DNA from: Microcystis elabens FACHB-917
GTDB taxonomy: Bacteria; Cyanobacteriota; Cyanobacteriia; PCC-6307; Cyanobiaceae
Direction of reading: 5' to 3'
Assembly: GCF_014698445.1 (NCBI RefSeq)
Contig: NZ_JACJSZ010000015.1
Span: forward strand, 1-63,070
Length of the DNA stretch: 63,070 bases
The translations under genes and the position numbers were made by a program. Under the pieces are notes generated by a model. That model had not been told where the DNA came from. It saw only the letters and a list, made by a program, of their open reading frames with translations, and made no database searches. Below, piece by piece: positions 1-20,148 of the stretch (the first letter of the stretch is position 1; each line of letters opens with the position of its first letter).

Positions 1-745
1 TGGCAGTGGAAGCTGCTGCAACCACCACTTCGGTGGCATCGGTCACCAAGGCAGCCGTTACTTCAGCTGTCGTACCGCTCACCGTTTGAGCGTTGCTCAC
101 CGTCACCGTGCCGGTGGTGCCAGAGCCAACTGCACTCAGATCAGCGGCCTGCTGCGTTCCGCTCGCATCGCTGATCGTGATGACGACATCGGAATCATCT
201 GCCAACACAGCATCCAATGCCGCTGTTCGTATTCCACCGCTGGCCAGATTGGCAAGCGTATCGGTGATACCCGCCGAAAACGCCAATGAGGTTGATATCG
301 AGGCACCAAGATTACTTCCCTGAGCAACAGAAACAGTATCGCTTACAGCGACACTGCCAGCACCATTAATTGAAACACCCGTCAGGATACTGCTGTTGCT
401 GGTTAGAAGCGCTCCACCACCCACGGCAATGGTAAGCGTTCCAAAGTTGCCAGTAAAAACCGTATTGGCGGCAACATCACCAATCCGAGTACCGGCGACT
501 GTGATGAGACTCAGGTCTGCTGCTGGCGTTTGATCAATCGCTGTGACGACTAAATTGCCGTCGCCAGTGATCGATGTCCCGTTGGCCCGGGCAGCAGTGA
601 TTGAGACCGTAAAGCCTGAAGCAACATTCAGCGAATCAGTGCTAGCTGTGAACGATGCAGCATTAAACCCAGCCTGACTCCAGGGGTTACCAGAAGAACC
701 ATCGCCATTCCCGGACGTTGGTGCCCCAAAATAGTAATTTGCCAT
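1..745 (-). CDS. Large repetitive extracellular protein, N-terminal part (runs off the window)
   Basis: An open frame of 248 codons without a stop starts at the ATG at 745 and continues past the window edge, so only the N-terminus is seen. The protein is rich in Ala, Thr, Ser, Val and Gly with almost no charged patches. It opens with MANYYFGAPTSGNGDG and has no classical signal peptide. Its distal part (about residues 180-245) has alternating beta-type segments such as VVITISDASGT, then a DLSAVGSGTTGTVTVSNA stretch, resembling units I associate with giant cyanobacterial cell-surface proteins. The ATG shares its A with the TGA of the upstream gene, which indicates translational coupling. GC content is visibly lower than in the housekeeping genes. 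A surface or secreted role is inferred; the function is unknown. Confidence 0.75.
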   Translation of the reverse strand, partial: MANYYFGAPTSGNGDGSSGNPWSQAGFNAASFTASTDSLNVASGFTVSITAARANGTSITGDGNLVVTAIDQTPAADLSLITVAGTRIGDVAANTVFTGNFGTLTIAVGGGALLTSNSSILTGVSINGAGSVAVSDTVSVAQGSNLGASISTSLAFSAGITDTLANLASGGIRTAALDAVLADDSDVVITISDASGTQQAADLSAVGSGTTGTVTVSNAQTVSGTTAEVTAALVTDATEVVVAAASTA

Positions 746-3700
746 CAGCCAACCCCACCATGCGCCGTCGGCGCTTCACCTAACCCATTCCCGGTGGTGG
801 AGCCAAAGGCAAAGTTACTCTTATTGAACGTGCCGCCAGCAACATTCACCGTGCCCATGCTGATCGAGCCCTGGCTCCAGTTGCCATCTGCGTCGAACAT
901 CAGCTGGCGGGTGTCGGTGGCGTAGGCGATGGAGGGGGAGCCCATGCCGAGGCGTTGGATGTCGGCGAGGGTGCCGACGACGATGCCAACGCGGTTGCTG
1001 CCATCGGCGCTGGCCTCCTGCACGCTGAGATCGCCGCTGGCGTTCACACCGAAGATGGCACCCTTCTGCTCCCAGAGCTCCTGGGTGACGCTGGCCAGGG
1101 AATTGCTGATTTCGAGCACATCACCGCCGTCGCCCGCCTGGAAATTACGGATCGTGTCGATGCTGCCGATCCGCTCGTTACCTGCGTTGCTGAGGAGCAC
1201 ACCGGTATCCCAGAGGGTTTCCTTCTGGGTTTGCGTGAGGGTGGCCCAGAGCGGTTGATCGGCAAGATCGTTGCCGAGGAAGGAGTTGTTGGACGCCCGC
1301 AGGGCAGCACCACCTTCCGAGAACAAAAAGCGATCCACGCCACTGCCGCCGGTCATGACGTCCTGCCCGTAACCTCCATCGAACACCGAGCCATCGCCGG
1401 AGCCCACCTGGAGGATGTCGTTGCCGATGCCACCCCAGAGCACGTTGTTCTGGGAGGGGCCGCCACTGCCATCGGCAGCACCGATGCGCAAGAGGTCATT
1501 GCCGATGCCGCCCCAGAGTGAACTGGCTTTGGCGCGATCGAGATCGATCGAATCGTTGCCGATGGAGGTGTAGAGATGGCTGCCATTGCTGGAGCCAGCG
1601 ATCAGATCATTGCCAATGCCGGTGTTAGCGGTGGAGTTGCGGATGCCATCAAAGCCGCCAATGCTGCCGTCTTTGGCGGAGCGGTCGAGGAATACCGAAT
1701 CGTTGAGGATGCCGTCGCCGTCGGCGTCGAATTCGGCCTCCACTTCATTGAGGATCTTGCCGAAGATGACGTCGTTGCCCAGGCCGGTATACATGCCAGT
1801 GGCATGGATGCCGGCAGTGTCGGCTTTACCGGCGGCAGCCAGGGATAGCTGCGGTGCGGCAATGCCGCCAAAGCCGCGGATAACGTCATTGCCCTGGTTT
1901 GTAAATAGCAAACTACTGCTAATACCAATGCCCTGCAGCTGCTGCAGATCTGTTTGGCCGGCCTGCAGATTGGAGCCAGTAGCTATATCGATTGTGGCGA
2001 GACCACGACCGGTGATAGTGGTAGCAAGGGTGGGGGCGCCAGAGATCAACGAGGAATCAATGCCAACGGCATTGCCATTGAGTGAAATGGGCTCATCACC
2101 GGCGCGAACGCTGCCATCCACCAGTAGGCTGGCGGCGGCAACACCATTGATCGAGGCCGTGCCATCGCCATTACCGAAGGGAACCGCCTTAATTTGATAA
2201 CGGTCGATAGCCTTGGCATCGGCGGTTGCAGAACCCTGCAGGCTGGTGCCATCGGTGGCTAGCAACTGAGCTTGCGCTGCCACAACAGCATTCGGCTGAC
2301 CGTAAAACATGTAAGCCGGCAGGATCACCGGCGTGGGCGTAGGTGTAAAGCTGCCAACGCGTACGCCGAGATCGTTGTTGTCTGGCTCTCGGGGTGACTG
2401 ACGTAACGGATCAGTGAGCAGCAGATCTTCAATACTGAAACCAGACCGACCGGTGCTGAGAAAATGCGCAATCGCATCTTGATTGGCAGCTGGATAAGCA
2501 AATAGTGTATATGGACTTCCGGAAGTTGGCACCACCTTGGCATAGGGAACAATCAGACTGGTTTCATTGACAGAAACCGTGAACTCGGCGGTCTGTTGAT
2601 CCGCCGGCACCTGAAAGTCCTGCAGCTCACTTACCAGATTGCCTGGCCGCAAGGCTTCACGTTCGTAATCAGTTGCGCCCGGTAGCAACACGCGACCATC
2701 AGCTGCTACTACAGCGCCATTGGCACCAAGAACACGGTAATAGCCTAGAACGGAGTCGTAATTAGCGTCCCGCTGCAGCGTAAAGGTTGTGGTGTAGGCC
2801 CCATCGGAGTTACGAAAATCAAGCAGCGGCAGCGGCTGCCGACTTGCCTGGCTGATACTTGCTGTGAGGTCGTTGTAATCGGGTTCTTGGCCAATAAAGG
2901 GCGGGCTCAGATCCTCAATGGCAAGAGTGTTGCCGCTGAGAGCCAGAAACTGATTAAAGGCAGCCGCTTCATTGAAGCCAAACACCTGCACCCCCTCGGG
3001 GCTGCCAGCTGTGCGCAAGGTGGCGAAAGGTGCCAGCAGGCCAGTCTCATCGACGTAGACAGCCCTGCTGTTGCTGCCGTCTTGCGGGAGGGAGAGATTC
3101 TGTAATTCCGTAACCAGATTGTCCGGGGCCAGGGCGGCAGCTGCATAGCCAGCCTCACCGGGCTTCAGGATCTGGCCAGTGGCCGTGCGGACGTTGCCTT
3201 CCTTATTGATGACGCGGTAAAAACCAAGCGTATTGGTTGCGCTGGCGCTTCGAAATAACTCCAGATTGGTAGTTGCCAGGCCACCACTATCGCTGAAGTC
3301 AAACAGTGGGGTGTTGCCACTGCCTGTAACCAGCAACGGTTGCTGCAGCAGACCAGGCGCCGCCTGAGCCGCCAGGATTGAATCGGTATCCAGCCGCTGG
3401 CCTTCAGGCCTTAATGGCTGGCGGTTAGAGAACTCGCCACTGCCTTCAAGGCCGCGCACCCGCGCGGTGGCTGTGAGCGTGCTGGTGGGCGAGCTGCCGG
3501 CAACGGGGCCGAGCACCGAGCCGGAGCCTGCGGTGGCTGAAGCGCTCAAGGGGTTGTCGGTGCTGCCGATCAGCAGGGAACCGCCGTAGCGATCGAGATA
3601 GCTGAGGTTGGCCAGACCGATGTTGGTGGCCAACGCCTCAGCGCTGGTGTCACCGCGGCCACTGGCAAAGGCACTAGCGACGGCATCGCCGTCGATCTGG

Positions 3701-3966
3701 CCACCACCAGAGGCAATCGAGAGATTGAGGCTGTTGAAGAAGGCCTCATCAACCAGGCCTTCGTAATACCGGGAATAGCCAGCGCCGATGCCGCGGGCGG
3801 TGGCGGTGGCGGCGGTGAGCTCGCTGCCCTCGATGGTTCGCGCGGTGGCGCTGGCCGAAGGGCTGGTGGTGAGACGCAGAAAACTGCCCGCCAACAGATC
3901 ACTGTCCGGCTCGAAGCGCAGGGCGACCGAGCGGGATGTGGCTGTGGTAGGCAGCAATGCAGCCAT
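745..3966 (-). CDS. RTX-type calcium-binding surface/secreted protein with two DUF4114-like domains
   Basis: 1073 residues. The N-terminal ~190 residues are Ala/Thr/Ser-rich, similar in style to the 1389-residue neighbour. Two related domains of about 165 residues follow (roughly 200-375 and 380-550). Each contains an LG(F/Y)YRV motif, a LxPG...Y turn and a terminal EDL...P-D-(Y/N)-ND motif, the pattern of DUF4114-like domains of extracellular cyanobacterial proteins. Residues about 690-900 carry several GNDxIxG-type nonapeptides (GNDVIRGFGG, GNDLIAGSS, GGIGNDLLRIG), the RTX calcium-binding signature normally linked to type I secretion without a cleaved signal. None is seen here. The gene lies 129 bp downstream of the 1389-residue gene and is coupled to the next gene through a shared TGATG. 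The middle portion is noticeably less GC-rich than the ends, suggesting mosaic origin. Confidence 0.8.
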   Translation of the reverse strand: MAALLPTTATSRSVALRFEPDSDLLAGSFLRLTTSPSASATARTIEGSELTAATATARGIGAGYSRYYEGLVDEAFFNSLNLSIASGGGQIDGDAVASAFASGRGDTSAEALATNIGLANLSYLDRYGGSLLIGSTDNPLSASATAGSGSVLGPVAGSSPTSTLTATARVRGLEGSGEFSNRQPLRPEGQRLDTDSILAAQAAPGLLQQPLLVTGSGNTPLFDFSDSGGLATTNLELFRSASATNTLGFYRVINKEGNVRTATGQILKPGEAGYAAAALAPDNLVTELQNLSLPQDGSNSRAVYVDETGLLAPFATLRTAGSPEGVQVFGFNEAAAFNQFLALSGNTLAIEDLSPPFIGQEPDYNDLTASISQASRQPLPLLDFRNSDGAYTTTFTLQRDANYDSVLGYYRVLGANGAVVAADGRVLLPGATDYEREALRPGNLVSELQDFQVPADQQTAEFTVSVNETSLIVPYAKVVPTSGSPYTLFAYPAANQDAIAHFLSTGRSGFSIEDLLLTDPLRQSPREPDNNDLGVRVGSFTPTPTPVILPAYMFYGQPNAVVAAQAQLLATDGTSLQGSATADAKAIDRYQIKAVPFGNGDGTASINGVAAASLLVDGSVRAGDEPISLNGNAVGIDSSLISGAPTLATTITGRGLATIDIATGSNLQAGQTDLQQLQGIGISSSLLFTNQGNDVIRGFGGIAAPQLSLAAAGKADTAGIHATGMYTGLGNDVIFGKILNEVEAEFDADGDGILNDSVFLDRSAKDGSIGGFDGIRNSTANTGIGNDLIAGSSNGSHLYTSIGNDSIDLDRAKASSLWGGIGNDLLRIGAADGSGGPSQNNVLWGGIGNDILQVGSGDGSVFDGGYGQDVMTGGSGVDRFLFSEGGAALRASNNSFLGNDLADQPLWATLTQTQKETLWDTGVLLSNAGNERIGSIDTIRNFQAGDGGDVLEISNSLASVTQELWEQKGAIFGVNASGDLSVQEASADGSNRVGIVVGTLADIQRLGMGSPSIAYATDTRQLMFDADGNWSQGSISMGTVNVAGGTFNKSNFAFGSTTGNGLGEAPTAHGGVG

Positions 3967-4095: not shown

Positions 4096-7000
4096 TCAGG
4101 CGCCTGCGCTGCCCGCCACGGAGCTGGCGAAGGAACGGGAATCGGAGTTGGCCGAAGCGTTCAGCGAACCACTGCCAATGATCGAGATGTTGTAACCGGA
4201 GAGGCCAACGGCGTCACTGCTGGCGGTGGCGATGGCATTGCCGGCAACCGAGGTGGCGGTGACGGTGTTGCTCAGCTGTGCGATAGCGGAGATGCCACCG
4301 TTGACACTGATGGTGCCGCCGCCACCGGTATTGAAGATGCCGTAGGCATCGGCATTGCTGGTGCCTGTCGCATTCCCGCCAACAGAGGTGGCGGTGACAT
4401 CAAAGTCACCCAGTGACGTACCCCTCACCAGATTGGTGCCGGACTGACCCGCAATGATGTCCGCATCCTTGATACCGAAGATCTCAGAAAGCGTGTTGGT
4501 CGCGATGGCCGTATCGGTGGTGGCATTACCGGTGTTGGAAGCCACCACACTGCCGCCGGCGATCACCTGGCCGGAGATGTCACCATCCCTGGGGCCAGCG
4601 GTGAGCACGGTGCCACCATCGAAGCCGACGATACCGGCGCCGTCGAAGTTGCCGTTGGCCAGAGCTGTGCCATCGGTGGTGGCGGCGGTCACGGTCACCT
4701 GGTTGGCGAGGGTGCCGCCAGCGGTGAGGGTGCCGATCACCGCCAGGCCGGAAATGTTGCCGGCGCCGTTGATGGTGATGTCCGTCGCTGCATCGCCGGT
4801 GAGGTCGATACCTTGCACCTGCACATCTCCATCGGCGGCGGCATTGCCGACGGTGGTCTGGGCCATGGCGGAGCCGGAGGCAAAGCCGTTACCGGTCACA
4901 TTGCCCGTGTCGCTGATCACGATCGAGTCGTCAGCGCCCTGATCGATACCGCTGGAGAGCAGATCAAGGTTGGCGGTGGCGTCATCGGCGAAACCGGTTG
5001 CTCCAACCGTGGTGGCGGCGGCGGTGCCCACCAGGGTGGTCTGGCCGGTGATGTTGCCGTCGTTGCCGATGCTGATCTTGCTGTTCAAGATGCCGTCGCC
5101 GGTCTGGAAGGCATCAGCAGTGGCTGCACCGATGGTGGAGCTGGCGGTGGCATTCAGCGTGGAAGCCGCCACGGCGGTGGTGTTGGCACTGCCGCCGACG
5201 GTGAGATCGGAAGCATTGATCGCAATCACCGAAGCATCAGTGTCGCCGGCGTCGGCATCCGCATCACCAGCCACGCCGGTGGCGGTGGCGGTGAGGTTGC
5301 TGATCGCATCGGAGCGGATGCCGGCGGTGGCACTGCCGCCGAGAAGAAGCGGGCTGCTGTCAATACCGATCACATCAGCATCGAGGCCACTGGCTGCAGT
5401 GGTGATACCAGTGTCGTTGACGTTGCTGGCGGTTGCGGTACCCGTCAACTGGGCACCAACGCTCAGCTTGGTCAGGTCTGCGCCGACATTGACATTCGTG
5501 GATGCGATACCGGTAATGTCGTCTGCATTGGCAACCGATGCTGTTACTTCTGTAGTGGCGCCTGCGATATCGCCAACATTGCTGGCCGTGGCCGTCTGGC
5601 TGCTGACGGCAGTGGCGGTCACCGCAGCATTGCCGCCGGTGACAATGCCGACAGCCGTTGAAGCGCTATCAAGGTTGATGCCGGAAACGGCATCATTGTT
5701 GACCGTTGCGCTTACACCAACAGCGCCAGTTGTGTCCGCATCCGTTGCAGCCGCTGTGGCACTGCTGGTGCTGGTGGCCGTACCGGTGATCGTGCCGTTG
5801 GCGCCGGTGGTCACCGTGCCGGTGCCATCACCCAGACCAGCCGTGAGGTTGACGTCGGTGTTGGCCTTGGCATCGCCGTCGGTGGTGAGTGCCGACGACG
5901 TGGTGGTGCCTGTGGCGGTACCGGAGACGGTGCCGGCGGCGCCGACGCTCAGAACTTGGCCAGTGAGATCGATACCGAGGTTGTTATCGATCAGGGTGTC
6001 GGCGGTGGCATCAGCCTTGGTGCCGCTGGCGGCAGCGCTGGCCGACAGGGTGGCCGCACCGGTGACCGTGCCGCCGGCACCGATGGTGGTGTTCAGCGCA
6101 TCAGCCAGGAAGGCGATGTTGTCGCTGGTGCTTCCTGTTTCGCCAGCCCGCGCGATCGCTTCATCCGCAGTGCTGTCATCACCTGTGGTGGCGGCCGTGG
6201 CCTGCAGGGTGAGGCCGGCCGTGGTGGCGATCGTGCCACCGGCGCCGATGTTCACCGCAGCATCGGCCTCAAAGCCGATGTTCTGAGCCACTTCGGAGGT
6301 GGCGGTGGCGTCATCGTCGACGCTGGTGGCGGCGGCCTTACCGGTGAGCGTGGCGCCAGCGTTGATCGTGCCTGTAGCACCGATGGTGACGGCTTCGCTC
6401 AGCAAACCTTGCGATTGGCCCGCATCCACCGTGGCCACAGCCGCGTTGGTGACGGTGCCAGCGGTGGCGTTGAGGGTGCTGTTGGCGGTGGCATTCAAGG
6501 TGCCGCCGGCACCGATCGAGAGCAGACCAGCGCCGTCTGTGGTGATGCCGAAGACGTCCAGAGCGTCTGTGCCGTCGCCACCGGCGATGGCGGTGGCATC
6601 GGCTTCAACGGAGGTGGCAGTGGCATCAGCTGCGACGGTGGCACCACCGGTGATCGTGCCGGCATCGCCGATGGTGAGGGTGCTGGCAGCGCCGACCATC
6701 TCAAGGCCGACGACCTTGTCGGCACCGGCGAGGGCTCTGGCATCGTCGGTGCCCCCTGTTCCAGCAGTGGTGCCAACGTTGGAAGCAGTGGCGTCGAGGT
6801 TGACGTTGCCGGTGGCCAGGATCGTGCCGCCGGCACCGATCGTGCTGGCACCCGATGCGTTCAGGCTGACGCCGGTCGCGGCAACTGTTGAGGTGCTGAT
6901 GGCCTCAGCGCCGCCATCCACGGCCGTGGCGGTGGCGGCCGAGGTGAGCGCCGAAGTACCGGCCAGGCTCAGGTTGGCACCAGCCGTGAGGCCGGTGGCA

Positions 7001-8265
7001 CCAGCGCCTGCGTCGGTGCCATCACCGAGCTGCACACCAATCAAGGTGCCGCTGGTGCCGGTTGCTTTGGATTCCTCGGTGGTGGCATCGCCGGAGGTGG
7101 CGGCCGTGGTGGTGAGGTTGGCGCTGGCGTTACCGATGACGCCGAAGCTGCCGGCGGCCGTGGCTGAATCGCCGATCGTCAGGGCATCGAGCTGGATCGC
7201 CCGGCTGTCGGTGAGCGTGTTGCTGGCGGTGGCGTCCACATCCGTGGAGGTGGCCGATGTGGTCGACAGGGTGTCGGCGAAGGCCCGGATCGAGGCGTCA
7301 TCACCCACCAGGAACGTGTCGGCCTGGATGCCGTCAACGGCACCGAGGGTGGTGGTGGCGCTGGCATCGCCATCAACACTCACCGCAGTGGCGGTGGAGC
7401 CCACATAGGCGCGGGCCGTGATCGTGGCGTCGCCGCCGGCACTCAGTACGTTGCTGACTGCGGTGTTAGTTCCGGTGGCAGCCGTGATGCCGGAGATGGC
7501 CGCGCTGTCGACGGTGGCGGTGGCATCACCTGTGTCATCACCGCCCACTGTGGTGGCGCTGGCGCTGAGGGTGATGCGATCCGCCAGGGTGCCGGCGTTG
7601 GCGGTGATGGTGGCGCTGTCGCCGAAGGCAAAGTCGGACGTGGCCGCTGTGGTGCCATCACCCAGGCCACTGATGGCCGCGATAGTGGTGGCATCGGTGT
7701 CAGCCGTGGCAGCCGCTGGGCTGGCGGCAGAGCCCGTGGTGGTGGCAGTGCTGGCCACATCGGCGTCCACATTGGCCGTCAGCGTGCCGCCGCCGCCGAC
7801 GCTGACGCCGATGTCCTGCAGGCCGAAGGTTTCGGTGATCAGGCCGGTCGCCGTCGCGTCCTTGTCGGTGCTGGTGGCCGTGGCGGTGGCGGTGTTGCCA
7901 ACCTGCACGTCGAGCGTGGAGCCGGCGCCGGCGGTGAAGTCAACGTCGTCGGCCTTGCCGGCATCGATGAAGCCACCGGCTTCCCCGGTGAACTTGGCCT
8001 CTGCGAGGGCGGTGTCGTCCACCGAGGTGGCAGCCGCCGTGGCGGTGCCGGTTTCCGAAATCGCGTAGGTGGCGCTGCCACCGACCGTCACGGAGGAATC
8101 GAGAACGCCGACGGCTTCGGTGACGGTGGCTTTGGCCTCGGAAGTACCAACCACCGTGGTGGCGGTGGATTCAGCGTTGGCCAGGGCTACCGCGGATCCG
8201 CTCAGATCATCACCAAGGAGGATCGTGCTGGTATCAACGGCGACTGATTGGGCGGTGTTGGCCAT
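4096..8265 (-). CDS. 1389-residue Ala/Thr/Gly-rich beta-strand repeat protein
   Basis: An extremely biased protein built mainly from Ala, Thr, Gly, Asp, Ser, Val and Ile. I see no Trp, Cys or His and only a handful of Lys, Arg and aromatic residues. It consists of roughly two dozen imperfect units averaging about 58 residues. Each carries an (I/V)G-x-x-GT(I/V)TGxA core (examples: TIGDAGTITGGA, TIGATGTINAGA, SVGAAGTVSGTA) followed by a TATAxSVDxDATA segment and a short GI/GL link. Such a regular Gly/Thr/Val pattern fits a beta-solenoid or stacked beta-strand repeat protein at the cell surface. There is no N-terminal signal peptide (MANTAQSVAVDTS) and no RTX motif in the protein itself. It is transcribed toward the RTX gene and divergently from the methyltransferase gene. 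The function is unknown; adhesin, S-layer-like or motility-surface roles are possible. Confidence 0.85.
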   Translation of the reverse strand: MANTAQSVAVDTSTILLGDDLSGSAVALANAESTATTVVGTSEAKATVTEAVGVLDSSVTVGGSATYAISETGTATAAATSVDDTALAEAKFTGEAGGFIDAGKADDVDFTAGAGSTLDVQVGNTATATATSTDKDATATGLITETFGLQDIGVSVGGGGTLTANVDADVASTATTTGSAASPAAATADTDATTIAAISGLGDGTTAATSDFAFGDSATITANAGTLADRITLSASATTVGGDDTGDATATVDSAAISGITAATGTNTAVSNVLSAGGDATITARAYVGSTATAVSVDGDASATTTLGAVDGIQADTFLVGDDASIRAFADTLSTTSATSTDVDATASNTLTDSRAIQLDALTIGDSATAAGSFGVIGNASANLTTTAATSGDATTEESKATGTSGTLIGVQLGDGTDAGAGATGLTAGANLSLAGTSALTSAATATAVDGGAEAISTSTVAATGVSLNASGASTIGAGGTILATGNVNLDATASNVGTTAGTGGTDDARALAGADKVVGLEMVGAASTLTIGDAGTITGGATVAADATATSVEADATAIAGGDGTDALDVFGITTDGAGLLSIGAGGTLNATANSTLNATAGTVTNAAVATVDAGQSQGLLSEAVTIGATGTINAGATLTGKAAATSVDDDATATSEVAQNIGFEADAAVNIGAGGTIATTAGLTLQATAATTGDDSTADEAIARAGETGSTSDNIAFLADALNTTIGAGGTVTGAATLSASAAASGTKADATADTLIDNNLGIDLTGQVLSVGAAGTVSGTATGTTTSSALTTDGDAKANTDVNLTAGLGDGTGTVTTGANGTITGTATSTSSATAAATDADTTGAVGVSATVNNDAVSGINLDSASTAVGIVTGGNAAVTATAVSSQTATASNVGDIAGATTEVTASVANADDITGIASTNVNVGADLTKLSVGAQLTGTATASNVNDTGITTAASGLDADVIGIDSSPLLLGGSATAGIRSDAISNLTATATGVAGDADADAGDTDASVIAINASDLTVGGSANTTAVAASTLNATASSTIGAATADAFQTGDGILNSKISIGNDGNITGQTTLVGTAAATTVGATGFADDATANLDLLSSGIDQGADDSIVISDTGNVTGNGFASGSAMAQTTVGNAAADGDVQVQGIDLTGDAATDITINGAGNISGLAVIGTLTAGGTLANQVTVTAATTDGTALANGNFDGAGIVGFDGGTVLTAGPRDGDISGQVIAGGSVVASNTGNATTDTAIATNTLSEIFGIKDADIIAGQSGTNLVRGTSLGDFDVTATSVGGNATGTSNADAYGIFNTGGGGTISVNGGISAIAQLSNTVTATSVAGNAIATASSDAVGLSGYNISIIGSGSLNASANSDSRSFASSVAGSAGA

Positions 8266-8413
8266 GAAGGGGAAAGGAGTGAAAAGGGGGAAGTTGAACT
8301 TCTGAACAAACGACCCCCAAGGGGACGTCCATCTACATTCCCCCCTCAGCCCTCCTTAAGCACGCGAATTACGCCAACTCGCAGGCGAGACTCTGCGTAA
8401 ACCTGCGGATCAT

Positions 8414-8470
8414 CATTGTAAACAATGCGCTTTGTCGCTGAAGCGCAAGCGCGCTGATGCGCATCAGCGC
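8414..8470. promoter_or_regulatory. Palindrome-rich divergent control region
   Basis: The 272-bp gap between the divergent repeat-protein and methyltransferase genes contains a perfect 22-bp palindrome at 8449-8470 (CGCGCTGATGC and its complement). It is preceded by ATTGT-AA-ACAAT at 8414-8425 and an inverted pair GCGCTT/AAGCGC at about 8427-8445. The symmetry and position suggest operator sites for a dimeric regulator, though a hairpin in a leader RNA is also possible. The rest of the gap holds no convincing ORF. Confidence 0.4.
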
Positions 8471-8537
8471 GTGAGCTGGTGCACTCATTGCCCTCCCAGC
8501 TTCGATCCAGCAGCCTGGTCTGCTACGCCAACGCCGC

Positions 8538-10034
8538 ATGTCCTGGGATCACGGCTACTTCAGCTCCACCTCCTACACCTCGGGCTTTTATCGCGAGCTG
8601 GCGCCGGCCTGGCTGGATTTCGCCGCCCTGCTCAAGGGTCACCAGCCACCGCGCAGCCACGAAGGTGATGCCTTTACCTACCTGGAGCTCGGCAGCGGCA
8701 TGGGGTTGGGCCTCTGCCTGCTTGCTGCCGCCTACCCGGAAGGCCGCTTCACAGGCGTCGACTTCCAGCCCGATCACATCGTCCACAGCCGCCGGCTGGC
8801 CCAGCAGCTCGGACTGGGCAACATCCAGTTCCAGGAGGCCGACTTCCTCAGCCTCGCCGCCGACCCCGGCCCGCTGGCGGCCGCTCACCAATACGTCGTT
8901 GCCCATGGCATCGCCACCTGGATCACCGCGCCGATCCAGCAGGCGCTGTTGCAGCTTGCTGCCGCAGCGCTCAATCCAGGCGGCATCTTCTACTGCTCCT
9001 ACAACACCTTTCCCGGCTGGCTCGGCGCCAGCGCCTTCCAGCATCTCGTTGAACGCATCCGCCAACGCCAGGCTGAGGCCAGCGCCGCCCAGGCGTTTCA
9101 GCAGGCCGCCGCCAGCCTCACCAGCCTGCTTGGCAGCGAAGAGAGCCCTTCTGCCCTTGCCCTGGCCCAGCCGGCCCTGCGCCGCCGGCTGGCCCAGATC
9201 CCCAATCAGAATGCCGCCTATCTCCTGCAGGAATATGCCAACCAGGGCTGGCAGCCCCTCTACGTGGACCAACTGCATCAACGTTGCGCCGCCCACAAGT
9301 TGCGCTTTCACGCCAGCGCCACCCTGCCGGAGAACTTCCTGGAGCTGCTGCCCGCCAATGTGCGCCCGGCGGTGCAGGCCGCCAGCGATCCAGCCCTGCG
9401 CCAGAGCCTCCAGGACCTGGCGATCAACCAGTCGTTTCGCCGTGATCTCTTCCTGCGCGGCGTTGCCACCAGCACCGAGGGCGAACTGCGCCAGCGCCTC
9501 AGCCCGATCATGCTGCGGCTGCAGGAGGCTCCCTCCACCGACAGCTACCGCTTCGACACCAGCTTCGGCCAGGTGAGCGGTGTGGCGGAGCGCTACCAGC
9601 AGCTGGAAGCCTGCCTGGCCAACGGTCCGCGCAGCTTTGGCCAGCTACTCGACGACACCCAGCTGCAGCTGGGGGAGCTGGCCAAGCTCCTGGCGTTGCT
9701 GCTGCACGCCGGCCGCATTTGCTTCGATCGCTCTGCCTGCGCCGATTTTGAGCGGGCCCGGCACGTCAATGACCAGCTGCTCAGCCTGATCGTCAGCGGC
9801 CGCCCCTATGCCCATCTGGTTGCCCCGGCCATTGGCGGCGGTGTGGGGTTTTCGCTGGTGGAGGCCCTGCTGCTTGAGGGTCAGCGCCGCCATCTGGGCG
9901 GCCAGGAGCTGGAGCAGCACCTGCAGCAGGGCCTGGCCGGCCTCGGCCGAAGCCTCCAGGGCGAAGCCGCCGAGAAGCTCACGGCCTTCGCCGAACGGCA
10001 GCCCCGCCTCCAGGCCCTGGGTGTGCTGCCATAG
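8538..10034 (+). CDS. SAM-dependent methyltransferase with C-terminal methyltransferase-regulatory-type region
   Basis: 498 residues. A class I SAM-binding fold is clear. Motif I is LELGSGMGLG (about residues 49-58), the acidic end of strand beta2 is in FTGVDFQPDHI, and a later CSYNTFPGW motif is characteristic of proteins that pair a methyltransferase domain with a 'methyltransferase regulatory domain' (PF10119 type) in the second half. Rickettsial members of this architecture methylate lysines of the outer-membrane protein OmpB. Here the gene is divergent from the large surface repeat proteins, so modification of a surface protein is an attractive inference, but the substrate is not shown by sequence. 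ATG at 8538 begins just before the conserved N-terminal segment. The downstream J-domain gene follows within about 50 bp, probably in the same transcript. Confidence 0.8.
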   Translation: MSWDHGYFSSTSYTSGFYRELAPAWLDFAALLKGHQPPRSHEGDAFTYLELGSGMGLGLCLLAAAYPEGRFTGVDFQPDHIVHSRRLAQQLGLGNIQFQEADFLSLAADPGPLAAAHQYVVAHGIATWITAPIQQALLQLAAAALNPGGIFYCSYNTFPGWLGASAFQHLVERIRQRQAEASAAQAFQQAAASLTSLLGSEESPSALALAQPALRRRLAQIPNQNAAYLLQEYANQGWQPLYVDQLHQRCAAHKLRFHASATLPENFLELLPANVRPAVQAASDPALRQSLQDLAINQSFRRDLFLRGVATSTEGELRQRLSPIMLRLQEAPSTDSYRFDTSFGQVSGVAERYQQLEACLANGPRSFGQLLDDTQLQLGELAKLLALLLHAGRICFDRSACADFERARHVNDQLLSLIVSGRPYAHLVAPAIGGGVGFSLVEALLLEGQRRHLGGQELEQHLQQGLAGLGRSLQGEAAEKLTAFAERQPRLQALGVLP

Positions 10035-10081
10035 GCCCGGCCCTGCTGTTCACCCTGGCGATCCTCGCGGCCCTGTGGCTG

Positions 10082-10549
10082 GTGTGCTGGGGCGGCCTGT
10101 CGGCCTACCTGGCCCTGATGGACCGCCTCACCCAGGCCTCCCGTGACTGCATCGCCAGTGAGCGGTTCCAGCAGCGGGCCCAGGAGCAGCAGCGCACCCT
10201 CACCGAAGCCCTGCGCCGCCAGCGGGGGTGGTCGATCACCGATCTCGACGGCCAGCGCCGCTGGCTGGAATTGACCCAGCTAGCCAGCTTTCAGCAGAGC
10301 TGTTACGGGGAGCTGGAGCTCCAGCAGGGCTGCAGCTGGGCGGAGCTGCGCCGCCACTGGCGCCGCAACAGCCTGCGCTGGCATCCCGACCACGGTGGCG
10401 ACCCCAACCAGTGGCTGCGCAAGCAGCGGGCCTATGACGCCCTGCGCCAGCTGGGGGGCGACACCCTGGCCAGCCGGCTGGTGCGCGGGGGGGCCAGCCG
10501 GCGAAGCCTGTTGCCCCCCCCGCGGCGGCGGCGCTGGCCCTGGCGATGA
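10082..10549 (+). CDS. Small membrane-anchored J-domain protein
   Basis: 155 residues from a GTG start. The C-terminal half has a J-domain-like segment with an intact HPD motif (residues 101-103, in LRWHPDHGGDP) preceded by an amphipathic helix rich in Arg/Trp, and it ends in a very basic tail (PPPRRRRWPWR). J-domains recruit and stimulate DnaK. The first residues are hydrophobic. In-frame codons upstream of the GTG, right up to the preceding methyltransferase stop, encode a longer Leu/Ala-rich transmembrane-like stretch but offer no ATG, GTG or TTG. The true start is therefore uncertain: a CTG at about 10043 or a small frameshift is possible. There is no Gly/Phe region or zinc finger, so this is not a general DnaJ. 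Confidence 0.65.
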   Translation: MCWGGLSAYLALMDRLTQASRDCIASERFQQRAQEQQRTLTEALRRQRGWSITDLDGQRRWLELTQLASFQQSCYGELELQQGCSWAELRRHWRRNSLRWHPDHGGDPNQWLRKQRAYDALRQLGGDTLASRLVRGGASRRSLLPPPRRRRWPWR

Positions 10550-10628: not shown

Positions 10629-11798
10629 TTGTGTTGTCCGTTGCCGCACGAACTGCTCGAGGGCAAGGCCGATACCTATCAGCACTTTCTGTCCTCTGAG
10701 GCGAAGATCAGCCTCGTCGAGTTCTCCGACGACTTTCACTTCCGCATCCAGACTATCGAAAGCCCAACGTTGCTGGTGCGGCACATCAGCACCTACGGAC
10801 AGGCCACGAACCAGGGCGAACTGTCCGATGCCTTCTTCGCGCTGATGCTCAGCTTCCACCCCGGTGGCTATAGCAGCACCGACCCTCTCAGCAACGCCGG
10901 CCCCCATCCCCCAGGCCCAACCCTGCACTGGCACCTCGCCAACTGCAGTTGCGTCAGCCACCATTGCAACTCGAAAGTCACCTATTTGCGCCTGGAAAGC
11001 GCCGCCCTGCTGCGTGAACTCTCCGCCCAGGCGATCACGGTGTCCCAGCTCAACAGCCTCCAGAGCGTGGCGGCACCAGCCAGCCTGGTGCACCTGATTG
11101 AAGACCTGGCAGAGCAACTCGCATACACCGATCTCAACCAACACCTCACGATCATCGAAGCATTTTTCAACCGGCTCGGCCAGGAGCTTAGGCACTTGCT
11201 GGGCCCGCCCACAGGCAGCGACGCCAACGCCGCAGGCCACATCTCGATCACCATGGCGTGGATGATGTCTCGGCTCAGCGAGTCGATCAGCCTGCAGAAA
11301 TTGGCCAAAGCCATCGGCCTGACCCCCCGCAGCGTGCAGGCCTGCTTCAAGAACAGTTTGGGCATTTCTCCCATGCGCTGGTTGAAACTGGCCCGCATGA
11401 GCCAGTTACGGCAATATCTCTGGAGTGCCGAGAATAAGCATCTCTCAATTAAGCAAATGATGGGCCTCTCCGGACTCAGCGACACAAGCCTTAATCGCCA
11501 GTGCTACGAAAACTTATATGGGGTCAGTCCCAGGGAAGAACGGCATCAAAGAGAGGCCCACGCAAAGCAACAGAGAGGTGGTGAAAATGCTCCTCTGCAC
11601 CTTCAATTCGAAAGTCTAAAAGCAGCCATTCAATATCTCAATGCATTGGACAAGCACAGCAGTGACATAAATAGATCTTACAAAATCATCATGCTGATCA
11701 AGTCAATCACCGACGACCGCAGCAATCGCGCAGCAAAGAAGCCGTCTCTCCGTCCCGATGATGGGCAGTCCAGGTCTGCTTCTTCAGTGACGGCCTGA
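10629..11798 (+). CDS. AraC-family transcriptional regulator
   Basis: 389 residues from a TTG start; an alternative start is possible because no strong ribosome-binding site is visible. The N-terminal ~190 residues are an unidentified sensor-like region. Residues about 205-310 form a typical AraC double helix-turn-helix: helix pair SLQKLAKAIGLTPRSVQACF, then a GISPMRWLKLARM linker, then a second pair ending in LYGVSP. The C-terminal ~80 residues are polar with an uncertain role. The gene is preceded by an AT-rich stretch (about 10550-10615) that likely holds its promoter. No obvious target operon lies directly downstream. The divergent palindromes at 8.4 kb are too distant to link by sequence alone. 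Confidence 0.8.
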   Translation: MCCPLPHELLEGKADTYQHFLSSEAKISLVEFSDDFHFRIQTIESPTLLVRHISTYGQATNQGELSDAFFALMLSFHPGGYSSTDPLSNAGPHPPGPTLHWHLANCSCVSHHCNSKVTYLRLESAALLRELSAQAITVSQLNSLQSVAAPASLVHLIEDLAEQLAYTDLNQHLTIIEAFFNRLGQELRHLLGPPTGSDANAAGHISITMAWMMSRLSESISLQKLAKAIGLTPRSVQACFKNSLGISPMRWLKLARMSQLRQYLWSAENKHLSIKQMMGLSGLSDTSLNRQCYENLYGVSPREERHQREAHAKQQRGGENAPLHLQFESLKAAIQYLNALDKHSSDINRSYKIIMLIKSITDDRSNRAAKKPSLRPDDGQSRSASSVTA

Positions 11799-17056: not shown

Positions 17057-17995
17057 TCATCCGCCGGCGGCGTTCTGCTCCCGGTCCAGCTCCCGCAGGC
17101 GCCGGAACAGGGCCTCCTCGGCCTCGGTCGGCCTCTCCGGAACGACGATCCGCACCTCCACCAGCTGGTCGCCCCGCTGCTCACCCAGACGCTGCCCCCG
17201 CTGCCGCAACCGCAGCAGCCGGCCGCTGGAGGATCCGGGCGGCACCCGCAGCCGCACGGGGCCCTCCAGGGTGGGCACCACCGCCTGGCAGCCGAGGGCG
17301 GCATCGGCGGGATGGAGATCCAGCTGGTAGTGCACCCGCAGGCCATCGATGCGCAACCCTTCCGCCGTGCGCACCCGCAGCTGCAGGAAGTGATCGGCGC
17401 CGCCGGCCGCCACTCCGGCCAGCCGCAGTCGCCAGCCATCCCCCGCCAGGGGCGGCGTCCAGACCTCCACCACCGTGCCGTCGTGCAGCTCCAGCTCCAG
17501 CCTCTGCCCGCCGAGGGCCTGCTTCGGGGTGAGGGTCACGAGGGTTTCCTGGTCGGTGGCGGCCATCACCGGTGGCGGCGAAGCCGGCGCCGTTGCCACC
17601 TCGCCCGACGCGGGGGGCTCCTCCTCGACGGGTTCCTCCTCCCAGTCGGGGGGGGTGCGGCGCTCCTGGCCGAAGAGTTGCGCCAGGTAGTCCTCGAAGC
17701 GGGGAAAACCCGTGGCGAAGGGATCGCTGTCGAGACCGGCGCTCTCCTCCCCCTCGCCGGCCTCCCAGGCGCGTCGGCGCACCGGATCGGAGAGCACCGC
17801 ATAGGCCTCGTTGACGCGCTTGAAGCGAGCCTCCGCCACCGGGTCATTGCCGTTGAGGTCGGGGTGCCAGCGGCGGGCCTGCTGGCGGAAGGCCCGCTTG
17901 ATGCTGGCCGCGTCGGCGCCAGGAGCCAGGCCGAGCACCTCCCAGTGATCACGGGCGGCGCTGGCCGCCGGGTCCGACGTGGATGATGGGTTCAC
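17057..17995 (-). CDS. dnaJ: DnaJ-type co-chaperone
   Basis: 312 residues. An N-terminal J-domain (about 16-80) carries HPD at residues 44-46 (RRWHPDLNG). A long acidic, Pro-rich linker (85-145) follows, then a CTD-type substrate-binding region from about residue 160 onward. There is no CxxCxGxG zinc finger, so it is a type II/CbpA-like J protein. It would deliver unfolded substrates to the DnaK encoded only 5 bp upstream. No membrane segment is present. Confidence 0.9.
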   Translation of the reverse strand: MNPSSTSDPAASAARDHWEVLGLAPGADAASIKRAFRQQARRWHPDLNGNDPVAEARFKRVNEAYAVLSDPVRRRAWEAGEGEESAGLDSDPFATGFPRFEDYLAQLFGQERRTPPDWEEEPVEEEPPASGEVATAPASPPPVMAATDQETLVTLTPKQALGGQRLELELHDGTVVEVWTPPLAGDGWRLRLAGVAAGGADHFLQLRVRTAEGLRIDGLRVHYQLDLHPADAALGCQAVVPTLEGPVRLRVPPGSSSGRLLRLRQRGQRLGEQRGDQLVEVRIVVPERPTEAEEALFRRLRELDREQNAAGG

Positions 17996-18000
17996 GTCCC

Positions 18001-20148
<2,148 letters not shown>

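What the first reader, a model, noticed from the sequence alone, without database searches (positions are those of the whole stretch)
8538..10034. Possible surface-protein methyltransferase, by analogy with rickettsial OmpB lysine methyltransferases
The architecture (class I SAM domain plus regulatory-type second half) matches enzymes known in Rickettsia to methylate an outer-membrane protein. Here the gene is divergent from huge surface proteins. The repeat protein has only about a dozen Lys residues, so targets would be few and testable.
Basis: partly seen in the sequence, partly recalled or inferred. Interest (0 to 1): 0.5.

Follow-up and report, generated by a model that had tools for sequence, protein, structure and literature searches.

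The report
Methyltransferase paired with cyanobacterial surface fibres
A picocyanobacterial gene encodes an enzyme of the family that methylates outer-membrane proteins in Rickettsia and Acinetobacter, and its relatives often sit beside genes for large surface fibres or pilus parts, so it probably decorates such fibres, although nothing yet shows that lysines of its neighbour are the target.

Summary
ORF 8538-10034 (+, 498 aa) has a class I SAM domain and PF10119 (E 1.3e-18). Its closest solved relatives are the Rickettsia OmpB lysine methyltransferases PKMT2/PKMT1, by sequence and over the predicted fold (Z 25.6, residues 9-498). The AdoMet-binding Asp and His are conserved (D75, H123). A published relative, Acinetobacter KmtA, methylates an adhesin, and its cluster already contains many cyanobacteria (PMC11784438).

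The new part is context. In 6 of the 7 loci of its clade the gene is divergent from the same giant low-lysine repeat protein, a predicted beta-solenoid. In the genus 34 of 41 homologues lie within 5 kb of a type IV prepilin motif or a giant surface-type ORF, against 9 of 106 control genes. At least six abut minor-pilin genes. Outside picocyanobacteria 12 of 31 lie beside giant surface-type ORFs.

Against the lysine reading: the repeat protein has 12 Lys in 1389 residues, and Lys is among its least conserved residues.

Verdict: a new member of a known kind, with plausible new substrates (pilins, secreted solenoids). Activity and residue specificity are untested.

The parts
8538..10034 (+). Methyltransferase, 498 aa, KmtA/PKMT-like
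8670..9035 (+). Class I SAM domain, residues 45-166 (D75 and H123 are the predicted AdoMet contacts)
9213..9458 (+). PF10119, residues 226-307 (FRRD motif at 300-303)
8266..8537 (.). Intergenic region between the divergent genes; presumed shared control region (inferred)
   Evidence: only the part next to the enzyme's start is well conserved
4096..8265 (-). Giant repeat protein, 1389 aa, 12 Lys; residues 726-1389 predicted as a beta-solenoid; candidate substrate
745..3966 (-). RTX-like protein, 1073 aa, 12 Lys; second candidate substrate
   Evidence: (weak RTX matches below cut-off)
2..745 (-). Start of a third protein of this kind, no Lys in 248 aa, runs off the contig
   Evidence: no Pfam match
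10082..10549 (+). J-domain-like protein with HPD motif (true start probably upstream, with a hydrophobic N-terminus), found after the enzyme gene in 6 loci
   Evidence: (PF00226 22.8 bits, below cut-off 27.8)
10629..11798 (+). AraC-type regulator, found after the J-like gene in 6 loci

Best explanation
The gene encodes a cytosolic, SAM-dependent protein methyltransferase of the outer-membrane PKMT family, KmtA-like. It most likely methylates side chains (lysine being the default expectation) of the large exported surface proteins encoded beside it, while they are still unfolded in the cytosol and before export, probably by a type I system, and so tunes how much fibre is displayed or how sticky it is. 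Shown: family, fold, AdoMet residues, conserved gene pairing, and the tie between enzyme clade and neighbour class. Inferred: activity, substrate, residue, compartment, export route and effect.
For: PF10119 and SAM domain. Best PDB relatives PKMT2/PKMT1 and a fold match over residues 9-498. D75/H123 invariant in 36 aligned sequences. Signature S[YF][NK][TC]xPGW in 74 of 85 homologues against 1 of 962 other called proteins. Divergent repeat protein in 6 of 7 loci of the clade. 34 of 41 genus homologues within 5 kb of a prepilin motif or giant surface ORF against 9 of 106 control genes. Neighbour classes follow the enzyme tree, 4 changes against 22.9 in shuffles. Giant adhesin, enzyme and ABC exporter consecutive in L154. 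KmtA and PKMT precedents (PMC11784438).
Against: Few and poorly conserved Lys in the candidate substrates. 19 of 31 homologues outside picocyanobacteria have no giant surface ORF within 5 kb, and several sit beside housekeeping genes. L089 of the same clade lacks the divergent repeat protein. No activity data. The related loci are not independent.
Confidence: 0.5

Rival explanations
1. It acts on the surface proteins but not on lysine: it methylates another side chain, or a sugar that a glycosyltransferase has put on the Thr/Ser-rich repeats.
For: Lys is scarce and poorly kept. A TPR protein with a GT41 glycosyltransferase domain lies beside a homologue in L054 (Pfam); a clustered relative lies in L081 and similar-looking genes by size and sequence in L070 and L071. 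Glycosyltransferases surround the Azospirillum plasmid homologues.
Against: All solved full-length relatives are protein lysine methyltransferases, and KmtA and the PKMTs act on lysine (PMC11784438). In the own genome the only GT41 matches lie on another contig and are weak.
Confidence: 0.22
2. It is a protein lysine methyltransferase, but its substrate is another surface protein encoded elsewhere, for example a major pilin; the neighbour is only a fellow passenger.
For: KmtA-like enzymes have no known sequence consensus (PMC11784438). Relatives of the repeat domain without an adjacent enzyme exist in other genomes. A major-pilin-like gene with 9 Lys in 149 residues lies beside the homologue in L071.
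Against: The pairing with the repeat protein persists although that protein diverges to 59% and less, and neighbour class follows the enzyme tree.
Confidence: 0.18
3. It is a small-molecule methyltransferase that happens to lie in surface-variable regions.
For: The SAM domain alone matches many small-molecule enzymes (Z about 16-18), and some homologues sit beside housekeeping genes.
Against: The only matches over nearly the whole length are protein methyltransferases; prepilin genes directly abut several homologues.
Confidence: 0.1

Closest known systems
Rickettsia PKMT1 / PKMT2 (OmpB lysine methyltransferases; PDB 5dnk, 5doo)
   Same: Domain order, predicted fold over residues 9-498 (Z 25.6 to 22.6), AdoMet Asp and His, SYNTxPGW signature
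   Different: About 17% identity in the structural alignment; OmpB-recognition residues L103/I130 are F76/F103 here; neighbour is a giant low-Lys repeat protein in a free-living cyanobacterium
Acinetobacter sp. Tol 5 KmtA (methylates the trimeric autotransporter AtaA; PMC11784438, cluster A)
   Same: Type A cluster is reported to hold many Cyanobacteriota; KmtA too lacks L103/I130 (paper)
   Different: KmtA's target has 234 Lys in 3630 residues (paper), the neighbour here 12 in 1389; no direct alignment with KmtA was possible
Mycobacterium tuberculosis Rv2067c (histone H3K79 methyltransferase, PDB 8hkr)
   Same: Second-best fold match that extends beyond the SAM domain (Z 17.2, residues 6-396)
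   Different: Shorter and weaker match; a secreted enzyme acting on a host histone (search listing of PMC10739865 only)
FliB flagellin lysine methylase
   Same: Methylates a surface filament (named in PMC11784438)
   Different: A different enzyme family as far as I recall; not compared here

Membership tests
[quoted passage not shown]
[quoted passage not shown]
   Z 25.6, 378 aligned, residues 9-498; Foldseek TM about 0.56, so domain placement differs somewhat
[quoted passage not shown]
   D75 and H123, invariant in 36 sequences (residue roles from PMC11784438)
[quoted passage not shown]
   Needs mass spectrometry or an enzyme assay
OM PKMT type R (Rickettsia type) | OmpB-recognition residues L103 and I130 | tested here: not met
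   F76 and F103 at the aligned positions
OM PKMT type A (KmtA type) | Charged motif of cluster A at KmtA Lys282-Arg295 | tested here: inconclusive
   FRRD at 300-303 is invariant in 36 sequences and lies in the corresponding region, but the KmtA sequence was not at hand
OM PKMT type A (KmtA type) | Falls in cluster A in a sequence clustering or tree | not tested
   No KmtA sequence; the paper says many Cyanobacteriota appear only in cluster A

The most novel reading that the evidence does not exclude
A dedicated surface-fibre methylation module in picocyanobacteria: one enzyme lineage has diversified together with its neighbours, one clade built into type IV minor-pilin operons and another paired with a lysine-poor, probably type I secreted beta-solenoid, and it modifies these fibres at residues other than, or besides, lysine. 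That would be methylation of pilin fibres by this family and a residue specificity not known for it.
Probability: 0.22. Interest if true: 0.68.

Novelty: new member of a known kind. Interest (0 to 1): 0.45.

Why it matters
[quoted passage not shown] The gene pairing seen here names candidate substrates, minor pilins and large secreted solenoids, in free-living picocyanobacteria. If true, methylation of surface fibres would be part of attachment or aggregation in such cells, and the prediction can be tested directly in cultured strains.

Tried and rejected
Chance ORF: rejected, since orthologues at 79-90% identity align over all 498 residues. A link between Lys number or position and the enzyme: tried, negative.

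Idea that homologues outside cyanobacteria without a giant surface neighbour would sit beside TonB receptors, as on some plasmids: not borne out. Of ten neighbours scanned none was a TonB receptor (GH31, YcaO, peroxidase, UvrB, RecG, HlyD, chemotaxis receptor, ABC transporter, PRA isomerase, one without a match). Plasmid neighbourhoods: 12 of 26 hit records viewed, 11 of them annotated: RTX, DUF4214, bluetail or calcium-binding proteins in 6, a FepA-type receptor in 3, type VI secretion genes in 1, none of these in 1.

Foldseek gave no PDB match at E <= 0.001 for the solenoid; OmpB was not among the rows shown, which excludes nothing.

Literature, held library only: PF10119 in 0 papers; 'methyltransferase regulatory domain' in 1, on another subject by its title; 'lysine methylation' + 'cyanobacteria' + 'pilin' in 0; 'minor pilin' + 'cyanobacteria' + 'methyltransferase' + 'operon' in 8, none on this by title; 'KmtA' + 'lysine methylation' in 1, PMC11784438. 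Of PMC11784438 I read outline, abstract and sections 6 and 8. All other papers were seen as search listings only.

Limits of the counts. The genus homologues are related and not independent. Of the 28 of 41 with a prepilin motif within 5 kb, 11 belong to the lepA/NifU clade and several of these share one pilin island with a pilin-clade copy; 9 of 41 lie within 1 kb. One search left out the second view of a gene seen in both L057 and L058, and the two unfetched fragments G027:C181 and G027:C92; the four rows with E from 2e-5 to 6e-4 (generic SAM domain) were not treated as homologues. L005 and L055 count as misses because the contig end cuts their repeat protein. The 20 control stretches were set at roughly even steps in two single-contig genomes (G001, G007) and placed so as to avoid the known homologues. 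The prepilin and surface-ORF screens are my own sequence rules; the ORF limit was 450 aa and 350 aa, and one search has no control. Some bin titles there (Akkermansia, Opitutae, Cytophagaceae) look doubtful; I put L150 (Cytophagaceae title) with the picocyanobacteria and L090 and L143 with the others.

Full report
WHAT IS THERE. The ORF at 8538-10034 (+) encodes 498 residues. Pfam finds a class I SAM domain (45-166) and PF10119 (226-307, E 1.3e-18). No NCBIfam model reaches its cut-off. The best PDB sequence relatives are Rickettsia typhi PKMT2 (E 2.1e-22) and R. prowazekii PKMT1 (E 9.2e-19), well ahead of the next entry (E 7.4e-5, SAM domain only). An AlphaFold2 model built with 35 relatives has pLDDT 88.3 and pTM 0.89. 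It matches PKMT2/PKMT1 over residues 9-498 (Z 25.6 to 22.6). The next row, METTL6, has Z 18.0 within residues 2-310. The mycobacterial lysine methyltransferase Rv2067c has Z 17.2 over 6-396. Foldseek TM-scores of about 0.56 show that domains are placed somewhat differently.

RESIDUES. D75 and H123 align with RpPKMT1 D102 and H146, which bind AdoMet according to PMC11784438; the PDB chain is numbered one higher. Both are invariant in the 36 aligned sequences. A signature S[YF][NK][TC]xPGW, present in both Rickettsia enzymes, occurs in 74 of 85 homologue proteins and in 1 of 962 other called proteins. The OmpB-recognition residues L103 and I130 are F76 and F103 here. KmtA also lacks both (paper), so in this respect the enzyme is like KmtA and not like the Rickettsia type.

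THE GENE PAIR. Divergent from the enzyme lies a 1389-aa repeat protein (4096-8265, -), followed by an RTX-like 1073-aa protein (745-3966, -) and the start of a third protein at the contig end. The enzyme's nearest relatives are in four genomes of the genus (79-85% identity), in Synechococcus sp. CS-1331 (90%) and in a Synechococcus UW140 bin (L089, 77%); the tree joins these seven as one clade (100/99). In six of the seven, the window included, the enzyme is divergent from a homologue of the repeat protein and is followed by a J-domain-like protein and an AraC-type regulator. In G033 and G027 the repeat protein is cut by the contig end. In L089 it is absent: no relative is found upstream, and a small-residue-rich 438-aa ORF lies upstream on the same strand. 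The repeat protein evolves fast (59% identity in G026, 54% and 41% over parts in G022 and G027), so the pairing outlasts its sequence.

WHAT THE REPEAT PROTEIN IS. Residues 726-1389 were folded with 16 relatives: pLDDT 93.7, pTM 0.92, all beta. Foldseek finds no PDB match at E <= 0.001. The structural second look gives solenoids: CsgA Z 17.8, EtpA adhesin Z 17.6 (332 aligned, rmsd 2.6), an RTX antifreeze solenoid Z 16.8, and other adhesins; repeats reach such values easily. I read it as a secreted, adhesin-like beta-solenoid. By eye it has no signal peptide. The genome has HlyB-like ABC exporters, the best at 721.9 bits against a family cut-off of 725.55. Type I export of this protein is inferred.

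RELATIVES AND THEIR NEIGHBOURS. In the genus 28 of 42 genomes have a match, one of them (G023) only a weak generic one. I fetched the neighbourhoods. Of 41 homologues, 28 lie within 5 kb of a prepilin motif and 6 within 5 kb of a giant small-residue-rich ORF, together 34. Among 106 control genes the figures are 4, 5 and 9. The limits of these counts are told in Tried and rejected. In L057, L059 and L061 the enzyme gene overlaps by four bases the last gene of a run made of a 561-572-aa prepilin-like protein, three minor prepilins and a 175-178-aa protein. In L066, L067 and L069 it follows a minor prepilin by 1-11 bases. PF07963 matches four of the five small prepilin-like proteins scanned, one of them just below its cut-off; the three large ones scanned have no Pfam match.

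A tree of 52 sequences separates a repeat-protein clade, a pilin group and a clade found between lepA and a NifU-like gene. The four neighbour labels, which I assigned, need 4 changes against 22.9 in shuffles; four rows had no label and several branches are long.

BEYOND THE GENUS SET. Among 16 further picocyanobacterial-type loci, 9 lie within 5 kb of a prepilin motif and 3 within 5 kb of a giant surface ORF. Among 31 other loci, 12 lie within 5 kb of a giant surface ORF and 19 do not. In L154 (Dongia) a giant adhesin of more than 3,200 aa, the enzyme, a C39-type ABC exporter and a protein that looks like a membrane fusion protein are consecutive. In two purple sulfur bacteria the upstream gene is an RTX protein with DUF4214. 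On plasmids 6 of 11 annotated neighbourhoods have RTX, DUF4214, bluetail or calcium-binding proteins and 3 have a FepA-type receptor. Against this, several of the others sit beside UvrB, RecG, YcaO and the like.

THE LYSINE QUESTION. The repeat protein has 12 Lys in 1389 residues and the RTX-like protein 12 in 1073. Against CS-1331 (1198 of 1372 residues identical) 6 of 12 Lys are kept; against G026 (807 of 1364) 1 of 12; one Lys column is shared by all five long sequences. Pairwise Lys retention is below overall identity in all four candidate substrate families: 0.25 against 0.54 (repeat), 0.49 against 0.78 (RTX-like), 0.55 against 0.68 and 0.40 against 0.58 (large prepilin-like). It is also lower in the enzyme itself, 0.70 against 0.84, so this is partly the usual behaviour of exposed Lys. 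Relatives of the repeat domain that lie away from any enzyme gene have between 0 and 29 Lys in the aligned part, so Lys number does not follow the pairing. KmtA and the Rickettsia enzymes have no known sequence consensus (paper), so unspecific methylation of scattered Lys stays possible. The data do not favour conserved Lys sites.

HOW IT MOST LIKELY WORKS. AdoMet is in the cytosol, so the substrate would be met before export. The most economical reading is methylation of the exported neighbour before it leaves the cell. By analogy with KmtA, whose loss raised adhesin display, adhesion and slowed growth (paper), it would tune surface display or stickiness. Family and pairing are shown; activity, residue and effect are inferred.

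NOVELTY. The kind of enzyme is known, and its presence in cyanobacteria is in print (PMC11784438). In the searches named in Tried and rejected I found no record of the link to minor-pilin operons or to this solenoid. Hence: new member of a known kind, interest 0.45, with the bolder reading in the section on the most novel reading.

Noticed in passing
window 4099-6090 (-): The last 664 residues of the repeat protein give a confident all-beta model (pLDDT 93.7) with many strands of 13-18 residues, yet no PDB match at E <= 0.001: possibly an unusually wide solenoid.
   Followed up: partly
L003 4522-6084 (own genome, contig C92): Second PF10119 enzyme of the genome, between a lepA and a NifU-like gene as in 11 relatives; here an RTX protein of 951 aa lies 1.45 kb away.
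   Followed up: partly
L057 1-6400, L059 9100-14800, L061 1-5800: Minor-pilin operons that hold the enzyme lie in low-GC islands (0.45-0.51 for these genes) in otherwise higher-GC genomes, which suggests horizontal transfer.
   Followed up: no
L054 3434-5764; similar genes in L081 7015-9531, L070 11835-13796, L071 6203-8425: TPR protein with a GT41 (OGT-like) glycosyltransferase domain near homologues; Pfam was run only on the L054 copy.
   Followed up: partly
L179, L182, L184 (plasmids): PF10119-type enzymes beside or near FepA-type TonB siderophore receptors in Haematobacter, Paracoccus and Acidovorax.
   Followed up: no
L181 7941-9476: A homologue directly after tssG inside a type VI secretion operon of Aureimonas.
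   Followed up: no
L041 and L044: Relatives of the repeat domain with 0 and 1 Lys in about 670-680 residues, while others have up to 29.
   Followed up: no
window 10034-10549 (+): The J-like gene is open upstream of its first ATG/GTG/TTG; relatives start earlier with a hydrophobic segment, so a start codon may be unusual or changed here.
   Followed up: no
window 17057-20148 (-): DnaJ and Hsp70 genes lie side by side within 10 kb of the enzyme; a link to surface-protein export is only a thought.
   Followed up: no
L090 7984-9603 and 9815-13891: A lake bin titled Akkermansia muciniphila carries a 56%-identical enzyme beside a 1358-aa beta-helix/Calx-beta protein: transfer between phyla or a mislabelled bin.
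   Followed up: no
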